21,154 nucleotides of DNA from a virus. This document shows positions 14,305 through 20,217 of the stretch, one piece after another. The DNA lies in IMG/VR virus record IMGVR_UViG_3300046007_004036, positions 1 through 21,154 of that record; one strand, 5' to 3'. The notes beneath the pieces were generated by a model, which made no database searches, was not told the DNA's origin, and worked only from the letters and a program-made list of their open reading frames with translations. Every line of letters begins with the position of its first letter. Position 1 is the first letter of the stretch. Made by a program: the position numbers and the translations under genes.

Positions 14305-14391
14305 TCATTTCTTCAATAATAAAATCTCAAAGTAAATTAAAAAAATGAATGCCGTCGATGCTCCAGTGATTGCAGCAATAGTAGCAATCAT
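14305..14391 (-). CDS. Tiny single-span membrane peptide (28 aa)
   Basis: Encodes MIATIAAITGASTAFIFL and ten more residues ending in LLLKK: one hydrophobic helix with a short basic end. AGGAG lies 7 bases before the ATG, and the ATG overlaps the stop of the 32-aa ORF (ATGA). The size and topology are like small photosystem or cytochrome b6f subunits, but I see no match to any of them. The Shine-Dalgarno sequence, the overlap and the terminator directly afterwards support a real gene. Function unknown. Confidence 0.55.
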   Translation of the reverse strand: MIATIAAITGASTAFIFLIYFEILLLKK

Positions 14392-14486
14392 TTTCCTGCT
14401 CCTGCATTTACAAGAAGTGCCTGGTGACGGCGTTGTTCCTTTTGCTTCTGCTCTTTAATGAGTTGAAGTGCATTAAGTTTTTTCAC
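14388..14486 (-). CDS. Small basic helical peptide (32 aa), GTG start
   Basis: Starts at GTG, which overlaps the TGA of the DUF4278-like gene (GTGA), with AGGAGG 7 bases upstream. The product begins MKKLNALQLIKEQKQKEQRR and is a Lys/Gln/Arg-rich helix ending NAGAGK. The ribosome site is the strongest in this small operon, and it is coupled to both neighbours by 4-base overlaps. No family recognised. A purely regulatory or coupling role cannot be excluded. Confidence 0.5.
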   Translation of the reverse strand: MKKLNALQLIKEQKQKEQRRHQALLVNAGAGK

Positions 14487-14620
14487 TTGTGCCCCTCCTT
14501 TACAAACTTAATACCACGATAAGTTTCGTTGTATTGTTGAGGTTGCTGCATCATCTGCTGTTGATACTCAATACGTTTTTGAGTATCATATTCTACACCA
14601 CGATATACGACTTTAGACAT
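14483..14620 (-). CDS. DUF4278-like small protein under a candidate glutamine riboswitch
   Basis: A 45-aa protein beginning MSKVVYRGVEYDTQKR and ending ETYRGIKFVKEGHK. The pair YRGVxY and YRGxxF flanking a Gln-rich middle is the pattern I recall for DUF4278, a cyanobacterial family of unknown function. AGGAG lies 7 bases upstream of the ATG; part of that site can be trapped in a hairpin of the upstream riboswitch candidate. It is the first of three small coupled ORFs that end at an intrinsic terminator. Short ORFs in this position gave the Downstream-peptide RNA class its name. The family name is from memory. Confidence 0.7.
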   Translation of the reverse strand: MSKVVYRGVEYDTQKRIEYQQQMMQQPQQYNETYRGIKFVKEGHK

Positions 14621-14627
14621 TAGGTTG

Positions 14628-14696
14628 CTCCTTTACTGAGTGTAAAGTGCGTTCCTTCGGTTTCCCTACTTCCGTCCCTTAGGATGAACGTGCTTT
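14628..14696 (-). promoter_or_regulatory. Candidate glutamine riboswitch (Downstream-peptide/glnA class) with SD-sequestering switch
   Basis: The aptamer lies at 14696-14644 on the minus strand. It has an outer stem AAAGCACGTTC with GAACGCACTTT, which has an internal mismatched step, and the core strings GGACGGAAGTAGG and CCGAAGGAACGC, which I recall as hallmarks of the glnA/Downstream-peptide RNAs. Next, CTTTAC (14647-14642) can pair with GTAAAG (14636-14631). This hairpin contains half of the Shine-Dalgarno sequence AAGGAG (14633-14628), and its CTTT is also needed by the outer aptamer stem. The two structures exclude each other, so ligand binding should free the ribosome site and turn translation on. 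Read by eye, without a covariance search. Confidence 0.75.
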
Positions 14697-18632: not shown

Positions 18633-19004
18633 ATGAAACTCTGCAGTGTATGTAATAGAACTCTTTCTTTTAATCATTTTCATAAGAGAACTTTAAAAAC
18701 TGGGAAAATATCCCACCAATCAAAATGCAAAGAATGTTCTACATCAGTAAGAAAAAAATATTATAAACCCCATGAATACATGAGAAGAAAATTTAATCTT
18801 TCTGAGACAGAGTATCAAGAATTAATGAAGCACGATAGTTGTCAAGTATGTGGCAGAGACATTACAGAAAAGAAATGTATTGACCACTGCCATACTACAG
18901 AAAAAATCCGAGGAGTGTTGTGTAATAATTGCAACACTGCTCTCGGATTAGTAGGTGATAATGTTCAGATTTTATCTAAACTCATCCAATACTTGGAGCA
19001 GTAA
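18633..19004 (+). CDS. Endonuclease VII-like HNH endonuclease, likely homing
   Basis: A 123-aa protein on the strand opposite psbA and psbD. It has two zinc-ribbon pairs at the N-terminus (Cys4/Cys7 and Cys32/Cys35), then a recombination endonuclease VII-type core: CQVC (70-73), [20 protein letters not shown] (82-101) with catalytic Asp84-His85 and His87, and LGLVGDN. Similar freestanding enzymes beside psbA in other cyanophages act as homing endonucleases that spread their gene and flanking psbA region. Its 3' end overlaps the psbA 3' end by 23 bases, and it carries the psbA terminator in antisense. A CTAAATAA box at 18601 and a weak ribosome site are all I see upstream. Confidence 0.88.
18901..18949 (-). 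terminator. Intrinsic terminator of psbA, embedded in the HNH gene
   Basis: On the minus strand AATCCGAG pairs with CTCGGATT (8 bp), and inside it AGTGTTG pairs with CAACACT (7 bp), with a small asymmetric bulge between. The stem is followed by a T run. It lies 33 bp beyond the psbA stop. The plus strand has no T run on its side. Confidence 0.85.
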
Positions 19005-20084: not shown

Positions 20085-20217
20085 GTTCGGGGGTACGAAC
20101 AAATACATTATATCCCACACCACCCTCCAGTGTGGGTATGAGAGACGTTTTTATACTCCCCATAGGTCTCGGTTAGTGGGAGTCGCAAACATTAATGAAC
20201 TGTAACATTCCTTAATG
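20085..20217 (-). promoter_or_regulatory. Structured psbA 5' leader (possible PhotoRC-II-type RNA)
   Basis: Four inverted repeats occur between the promoter and psbA: 20190-20217 (CATTAAGGAA with TTCATTAATG, one mismatch), 20155-20183 (ACTCCC with GGGAGT), 20114-20136 (CCCACAC with GTGTGGG, loop TGGAGGGTG) and 20085-20100 (GTTCG with CGAAC). Conserved RNAs named PhotoRC-I and -II are known in psbA leaders of cyanobacteria and cyanophages; whether this matches their consensus I cannot check. The only GGAGG in the leader sits in the third loop, over 50 bases from the start codon. The whole gap (20062-20293) holds no ORF I can support. Confidence 0.6.

What the first reader, a model, noticed from the sequence alone, without database searches (positions are those of the whole stretch)
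14628..14696. Glutamine-type riboswitch in a phage with a visible on-switch over a small ORF
Seen: the strings GGACGGAAGTAGG and CCGAAGGAACGC inside a stem, then CTTTAC and GTAAAG able to form a hairpin that covers part of the Shine-Dalgarno sequence. The CTTT is shared with the outer aptamer stem, so the two folds compete. Known: glnA and Downstream-peptide RNAs bind glutamine and occur in cyanobacteria and cyanophages. Inference: the phage senses nitrogen status through glutamine and turns on a DUF4278-like peptide when it is plentiful.
Basis: partly seen in the sequence, partly recalled or inferred. Interest (0 to 1): 0.82.

Follow-up and report, generated by a model that had tools for sequence, protein, structure and literature searches.

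The report
Cyanophage glutamine riboswitch above tiny genes
A virus of cyanobacteria carries a standard RNA glutamine sensor in front of a tiny gene, which is a known kind of thing; but in many related viruses the same sensor is doubled back to back and has whole small genes tucked inside it, which I could not find described.

Summary
Rfam's glutamine riboswitch model (RF01739) hits window 14692-14646, minus strand, at 53.6 bits (cut-off 35). It lies in a T4-like cyanophage contig, upstream of a 45-aa DUF4278-like ORF and two coupled tiny ORFs. Type-1 glutamine riboswitches, their link to DUF4278 genes, their ON action and their presence in cyanophages are all published, so the window element is a new member of a known kind. 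The AAAG/CUUU outer stem is not conserved. The better-supported OFF stem takes P1's last G (14650) and the next C (14649), both glutamine-site bases, to cover the Shine-Dalgarno; the same geometry recurs in most of 71 distinct viral platforms. Relatives of the same gene gave the surprise. All 80 viral loci found by the downstream protein alone carry a glutamine-aptamer element; 13 are single like the window, while about 60 are two interlocked aptamers sharing their P3 helix. In many of these, conserved 49-73-aa ORFs sit entirely inside the aptamer loops. Covariation of P2, P3 and the 23:60 ligand-site pair supports this; I found no earlier description. The window is the reduced single form. 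Glutamine binding and translation remain untested.

The parts
14646..14692 (-). type-1 glutamine (glnA) aptamer, full length
   Evidence: RF01739 53.6 bits, cut-off 35, model 1-53/53; same from the own-genome search
14686..14690 (-). P1 5' strand CGUUC
   Evidence: pairs with GAACG 14654-14650 (alignment); relatives such as L308 and L313 have the compensated CGUUG/CAACG
14650..14654 (-). P1 3' strand GAACG; G14650 is the ligand-contacting G59 of the glutamine-I structure
   Evidence: ligand contacts from PMC6698751, numbering mapped from the construct in PMC5393176
14675..14684 (-). P2 hairpin UCC-UAAG-GGA; in related phages whole genes sit in this loop
14659..14666 (-). P3 GG-GAAA-CC; in related phages this helix is shared with a second, inner aptamer
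14672..14674 (-). C21-G22-G23 of the glutamine site; G23 pairs with C60
   Evidence: sequence plus PMC6698751; the 23:60 pair covaries in relatives
14649..14649 (-). C60, first base after P1; shared by aptamer (G23:C60) and OFF stem (C:G14628)
   Evidence: sequence; folds
14627..14650 (-). predicted OFF stem (GC)A(CUUUAC)ACUCA(GUAAAG)GA(GC) covering the SD
   Evidence: MFE of the whole leader contains it; conserved in near relatives
14628..14634 (-). Shine-Dalgarno AAAGGAG
   Evidence: sequence, 7 nt before the ATG
14483..14620 (-). ORF1, 45 aa, YRG/DUF4278-like small protein
   Evidence: phrog_5049 E 1e-10; DUF4278 E 0.0013; 93% identical to an annotated CDS of phage DSL-LC02
14388..14486 (-). 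ORF2, 32 aa (GTG start overlapping the ORF1 stop), MKKLNALQLIKEQKQKEQRRHQALLVNAGAGK
   Evidence: sequence; resembles the direct riboswitch target in L097
14305..14391 (-). ORF3, 28 aa hydrophobic (ATG overlapping the ORF2 stop), MIATIAAITGASTAFIFLIYFEILLLKK
   Evidence: sequence

Best explanation
The element is a type-1 (glnA) glutamine riboswitch of a T4-like cyanophage. It controls translation of a small operon of three overlapping tiny ORFs (45, 32 and 28 aa), the first related to DUF4278. Without glutamine, the last G of P1 and the next C pair with GC just after GGA, extending the CUUUAC/GUAAAG hairpin so that the Shine-Dalgarno lies inside a stem: translation is low. With glutamine, those two bases are held in the C1:G59 and G23:C60 pairs of the binding site, the base of the OFF stem is lost and the ribosome site is freed: translation rises. 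Shown: the aptamer, its conserved ligand-site bases, the hairpin and the ORF arrangement. Inferred: binding, direction of switching, translational mechanism. By comparison with relatives, the window aptamer equals the outer aptamer of an interlocked double aptamer common in cyanophages, with the inner aptamer and any nested gene absent.
For: RF01739 hit of 53.6 bits. Every ligand-site base of the glutamine-I structure is present (PMC6698751). 6-bp hairpin on the SD with invariant arms and variable loop in near relatives, 373/20000 in shuffles; the MFE contains the extended OFF stem. Across 71 distinct viral platforms the SD-side stem usually starts exactly at P1's last G or the next C with different sequences (CACC..GGUG, CAUCU..AGAUG, CGCACUU..AAGUGCG); SD occupancy exceeds shuffles in four families (0.88 vs 0.62, 0.81 vs 0.51, 0.79 vs 0.61, 0.67 vs 0.40). 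For tails leading to YRG genes, own arms fold better than swapped arms (-5.81 vs -4.95, lowest swap -5.32). All 80 viral loci found by the YRG protein alone carry a glutamine-aptamer element. Published: glutamine riboswitches mostly precede DUF4278 genes and turn them on (PMC6316151).
Against: SD occupancy for the YRG group as a whole is no higher than in shuffles (0.54 vs 0.53) and for the window itself only 0.50 vs 0.45; swapping arms does not lower SD occupancy (0.71 vs 0.70). The 6-bp hairpin alone can coexist with the aptamer; exclusion rests on two G-C pairs. Folding energies ignore ligand and tertiary contacts. DUF4278 membership of the window ORF is below the curated cut-off.
Confidence: 0.8

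Rival explanations
1. One reading: the CUUU of the hairpin is shared with an outer aptamer stem AAAG/CUUU, and this 4-bp extension is what competes with the SD hairpin.
For: The pairs exist in the window and add about 2 kcal/mol to the aptamer.
Against: L010 and L122 have AAAU; other YRG loci such as L001, L002 and the CGCUCUUUAA..UUAAGGAG group have no such outer stem; the general platform geometry starts at P1's edge.
Confidence: 0.12
2. The aptamer is real but acts on transcription termination or mRNA stability, or is an OFF switch.
For: Glutamine riboswitch direction was not measured here; platform evidence in the YRG group is moderate.
Against: No terminator-like site on the minus strand between aptamer and ORF1; the SD lies 12 nt after the aptamer; published type-1 and type-2 examples are ON switches, thought to act on translation (PMC6316151, PMC6698751).
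Confidence: 0.12
3. A decayed riboswitch: aptamer kept by descent, no longer regulating.
For: No functional data.
Against: All contact bases intact, 53.6 bits; element present in all 80 loci found by the downstream protein alone; arms invariant, loop free.
Confidence: 0.05

Closest known systems
Type-1 glutamine (glnA) riboswitch, RF01739, of cyanobacteria (gifB leader of Synechocystis; PMC6316151)
   Same: Aptamer model above cut-off, contact bases, gene of the DUF4278 kind downstream, SD just after the aptamer
   Different: Phage-borne; target is a 45-aa two-YRG protein followed by two overlapping tiny ORFs, without the C-terminal inhibitory part of IF17; own platform sequence
Glutamine riboswitches reported in T4-like cyanophages and marine myophages (PMC9964418, PMC9602691, PMC9004378)
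   Same: Same family in the same kind of virus
   Different: In the passages I read they list the RNA (or place it at tmRNA) and do not describe platform, interlocked doubles or nested genes
Glutamine-II (Downstream-peptide) riboswitch, RF01704
   Same: Near-identical glutamine site; precedes small-peptide ORFs in marine picocyanobacteria
   Different: Pseudoknot fold; no hit in the window; only sub-threshold hits in related phages (26.4 bits, cut-off 33)
Tandem glutamine riboswitches (PMC9481103: 157 doublets, 4 triplets; PMC2864571)
   Same: Two aptamers in one leader
   Different: Described as tandem pairs; the cyanophage doubles here fit an interlocked fold sharing P3, some with genes inside

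Membership tests
Type-1 glutamine riboswitch (RF01739) | Covariance-model score above the curated cut-off over the full model | tested here: met
   53.6 vs 35 bits, 1-53/53
Type-1 glutamine riboswitch (RF01739) | Three-way junction P1/P2/P3 with loop-E sequence (GAAGUA / GAAG) and conserved site bases C1:G59, G22, C58, G23:C60 | tested here: met
   Alignment; site definition from PMC6698751 and PMC5393176
Type-1 glutamine riboswitch (RF01739) | Selective L-glutamine binding | not testable with these tools
   needs in-line probing or ITC
Type-1 glutamine riboswitch (RF01739) | Expression platform exclusive with the aptamer | tested here: inconclusive
   OFF stem takes 14649-14650; family-wide geometry supports it but SD occupancy in the YRG group is not above shuffles
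Glutamine-II riboswitch (RF01704) | Covariance-model score above cut-off | tested here: not met
   no hit in the window
DUF4278 (PF14105) | Score above Pfam gathering cut-off 25.3 bits | tested here: not met
   19.5 bits, E 0.0013
DUF4278 (PF14105) | YRG-type motif and homology of the protein family | tested here: met
   two YRG motifs; 7/7 phage relatives match, best E 5.4e-7; so homologous, but the window ORF is not a formal member
Glutamine synthetase inactivating factor IF17 (gifB) | C-terminal inhibitory region | tested here: not met
   the 45-aa ORF matches only the DUF4278 part, which PMC6316151 reports as disposable for IF17 function

The most novel reading that the evidence does not exclude
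In many relatives of this phage the leader of the same gene is not one aptamer but two interlocked ones: an outer type-1 aptamer made of the first 5' half and the last 3' half, closed on its P3 by an inner, circularly permuted aptamer, so that two glutamine sites stand back to back on one shared helix. Whole small protein genes (66-73 aa in the outer P2, mostly 49-65 aa in the inner P2) are nested inside, with the start codon at a fixed place by the P2 5' strand; the inner gene's stop codon lies in the aptamer core, the outer gene's at or just before it. Translating a nested gene and folding the sensor should exclude each other, so one RNA could switch the nested genes and the downstream gene in opposite directions (this last step is a guess). 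The window is the reduced, single form of this system.
Probability: 0.72. Interest if true: 0.82.

Novelty: new member of a known kind. Interest (0 to 1): 0.52.

Why it matters
The window adds a clean phage example of glutamine sensing, suggesting that a cyanophage ties a small-protein operon to host nitrogen state, with a specific, mutable switch. Its relatives matter more: a ligand-binding RNA that houses conserved genes in its loops would be, to my knowledge, a new way to build a riboswitch. It makes directly testable whether translation of a nested gene and ligand sensing compete, and what several hypothetical small-protein families of well-studied phages (P-SSM2, P-SSM4, P-SSM7, Syn19, S-SSM7) are for.

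Tried and rejected
AAAG/CUUU outer stem: not conserved. Plain side-by-side tandem of aptamers A and B in relatives: fails at the 23:60 pair in about half of the loci and cannot explain the A-B covariation of P3. 'CGUUC before the nested ORF is only an anti-P1 of aptamer A': would not explain the P2 complementarity across the ORF, the ORF-less loci with a normal short P2, or the kept 3' half. Ascertainment by my DNA pattern: checked by finding loci through proteins only. Glutamine synthetase inhibition by the 45-aa protein: only the dispensable part of IF17 is matched. Terminator control: nothing on the minus strand. A host origin of the nested arrangement: one genome scan found only 3 contigs with the motif, two in Prochlorococcus assemblies and one in an Acidimicrobiia MAG; I did not establish whether these contigs are phage. 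The original papers on the glutamine riboswitches (10.1093/nar/gky709, PubMed 21282981) were not held, so an earlier mention in them or in supplements cannot be excluded; [quoted passage not shown]

Full report
OBSERVATION. The contig also carries psbA and psbD (named here from their translations), thyX and a SAM decarboxylase, and DNA matches at this locus are all cyanophages, mostly of Synechococcus, so it is a T4-like cyanophage.

SURROUNDINGS. The aptamer lies about 40 nt after the end of ORF 15049-14732 (phrog_507). The SD AAAGGAG (14634-14628) and the ATG (14620) of a 45-aa ORF follow. That ORF is followed by two further tiny ORFs in overlapping start/stop arrangement (GTG at 14486, 32 aa; ATG at 14391, 28 aa), read directly from the sequence. 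The 45-aa protein has two YRG motifs. It scores 19.5 bits against DUF4278 (cut-off 25.3), but all seven phage family members match DUF4278, best E 5.4e-7. Published work reports that glutamine riboswitches in cyanobacteria mainly precede DUF4278 genes, that DUF4278 is the N-terminal part of the glutamine synthetase inactivating factor IF17, that this part is disposable for IF17 function, and that the switches activate expression (PMC6316151). Glutamine riboswitches in T4-like cyanophages are mentioned in PMC9964418 and PMC9602691 and in a marine methylophage in PMC9004378.

THE SWITCH. CUUUAC/GUAAAG is a perfect 6-bp stem over the SD; 373 of 20000 shuffles do as well. In the whole-leader MFE it is extended by two G-C pairs: G14650 and C14649 with C14627 and G14628. 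From the glutamine-I structure (PMC6698751, numbering from the construct in PMC5393176) G14650 is G59, which contacts the ligand in the C1:G59 pair, and C14649 is C60, which I take to be the partner in the long-range pair at the foot of P1. The OFF stem and the occupied site therefore want the same two bases. This is also the general geometry: in 71 distinct viral platforms the stem on the SD side usually starts at P1's last G or the next C, with different sequences. Support is strong in four of the target families and moderate at best in the YRG family. Direction (ON) and translational action are inferred.

RELATIVES. Their targets are diverse tiny proteins (YRG, WxxYCR, TKYQ, FTHLF, RHLR types), and many are tandem, as known for this family (PMC9481103; PMC2864571).

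THE UNEXPECTED PART. The closest isolate, Synechococcus phage DSL-LC02, encodes the same 45-aa protein (93%) after the same upstream gene, but its leader reads: aptamer 5' half and core, GGAACGGAUCGUUCAUCU, ATG of a 50-aa ORF, then AUAGACGCAAAAGUUGACUGAAGGAACG, platform, YRG gene. The same layout is in S-SRM01, P-SSM2, P-SSM7 and S-SZBM1. Two more pattern scans gave 51 and at least 120 further viral contigs. Several loci without an ORF have an ordinary short P2 at the same place, and the second element alone passes the Rfam cut-off in L208, L129 and L171. The gap between CGUUC and GACG is sharply bimodal: 276 short and 52 of 200-260 nt for the first P2 (this count includes single aptamers), 29 short and 156 of 140-200 nt for the second. 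Of the long ones, 52 of 52 and 154 of 156 hold an ORF starting 9-13 nt from CGUUC; 153 of 154 second-loop ORFs stop at the same core position. The ORFs are under purifying selection (pN/pS 0.23-0.30 in the larger groups, 0.55 in one small group) and are annotated as hypothetical proteins in the isolates. P2 remains complementary across the ORF and varies in concert (UCUAU/AUAGA, UCCCA/UGGGA, UCUUU/AAAGA, UCCUU/AAGGA): mean stem 5.96 against 4.33 for swapped partners, maximum 5.37 in 500 permutations. For first-loop ORFs there are too few types for that test (5.38 vs 4.81, maximum 5.62), though P-SSM4, Syn19 and S-TIM4 each pair with different sequences.

INTERLOCKED FOLD. The pair at positions 23:60 distinguishes two ways of joining the halves. 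First-half 23 with second-half 60 pairs in 144 of 144 distinct tandem loci and second 23 with first 60 in 132, against 71 and 66 for the in-register pairs; over distinct cores 1.00 and 0.88 against 0.61 and 0.53. The stretch after GUA in the first element and the stretch before GAAGG in the second pair with each other: 0.99 at P3 positions 1, 2, 4 and 5, at most 0.47 when slid by 1-3, none of 1000 permutations as good, with A-U/G-C/C-G at position 1, G-C/U-A at 2, G-C/A-U at 5 and U-A/G-C/A-U at 8. Position 3 is usually a mismatch. cmscan itself aligns L218 this way, joining the first 5' half to the last 3' half over a 47-nt P3 insert at 51.3 bits; L331, whose in-register 23:60 pairs are intact, is instead matched as two separate aptamers. 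So the outer aptamer is a type-1 aptamer; the inner one is the same junction in circular permutation and is less strictly kept (its 23:60 pair fails in 6 of 49 cores). The two folds could also exchange, because all P1 strands are alike.

ASCERTAINMENT. Thirteen isolate loci found by protein similarity to the nested ORF all have the halves around it; five also have an ORF in the first P2. Eighty viral loci found by the YRG protein alone all have a glutamine-aptamer element: 40 double without genes, 13 single like the window, 12 with a gene in the second P2, 5 in the first, 4 in both, and 6 incomplete or odd. These are the 80 closest to the query of at least 398. Related sequences are not independent, so permutation counts are not exact probabilities; but compensatory changes recur in isolates of different genera.

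WHAT THE WINDOW IS. Its aptamer equals the outer aptamer with P3 capped by GAAA. Whether the single form is ancestral or a collapse is not settled. In a subset of leaders a TATAAATA motif, a T4-type late promoter by my own knowledge, sits just upstream of the first aptamer (37 of 420 leaders against 38 of 8400 background windows); the window has only TATATAAA there.

VERDICT. The window feature is a real glutamine riboswitch and a new member of a known kind, with a revised switch model. The architecture in its relatives, interlocked aptamers with nested genes, is the part a specialist would find surprising; I found no description in the papers I could search, but key original papers and supplements were not available.

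Noticed in passing
L001-L005, L126-L296, L300-L392: Small ORFs nested inside glutamine aptamers of cyanophages: mostly 49-65 aa (..DAK(V/A)D ending, phrog_504) in the inner P2 and 66-73 aa (MTKALLLLAWVPLL.. or phrog_6471) in the outer P2, with the two aptamers interlocked through a shared P3.
   Followed up: yes
L007, L009, L019, L027, L028 and others: Further tandem glutamine aptamers of another layout upstream of WxxYCR and TKYQ type tiny proteins; whether they are also interlocked was not tested.
   Followed up: no
L026, L049, L087, L033, L011, L118: YRG genes whose leader has a hairpin right after the aptamer that does not touch the SD (for example CAUUGAUGAAGUUUAUCAAU); a different platform, perhaps another mechanism.
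   Followed up: no
window 20100-20195 (-): PhotoRC-II RNA (RF01717, 78.8 bits) directly upstream of psbA; a known cyanophage motif.
   Followed up: no
window 18633-19004 (+): ORF that looks like an HNH-type endonuclease, on the opposite strand between psbD and psbA, its 3' end overlapping the psbA 3' end by 23 nt (called by eye, not scanned).
   Followed up: no
leaders of 420 distinct aptamers: TATAAATA lies mostly 5-10 nt upstream of the first aptamer in 37 leaders against 38 of 8400 background windows, as if transcription from a phage late promoter began at the aptamer.
   Followed up: partly
L310, L349, L351: Loci with only the second half-element left upstream of the YRG gene; its 23:60 pair is C-C, so probably a broken aptamer.
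   Followed up: no
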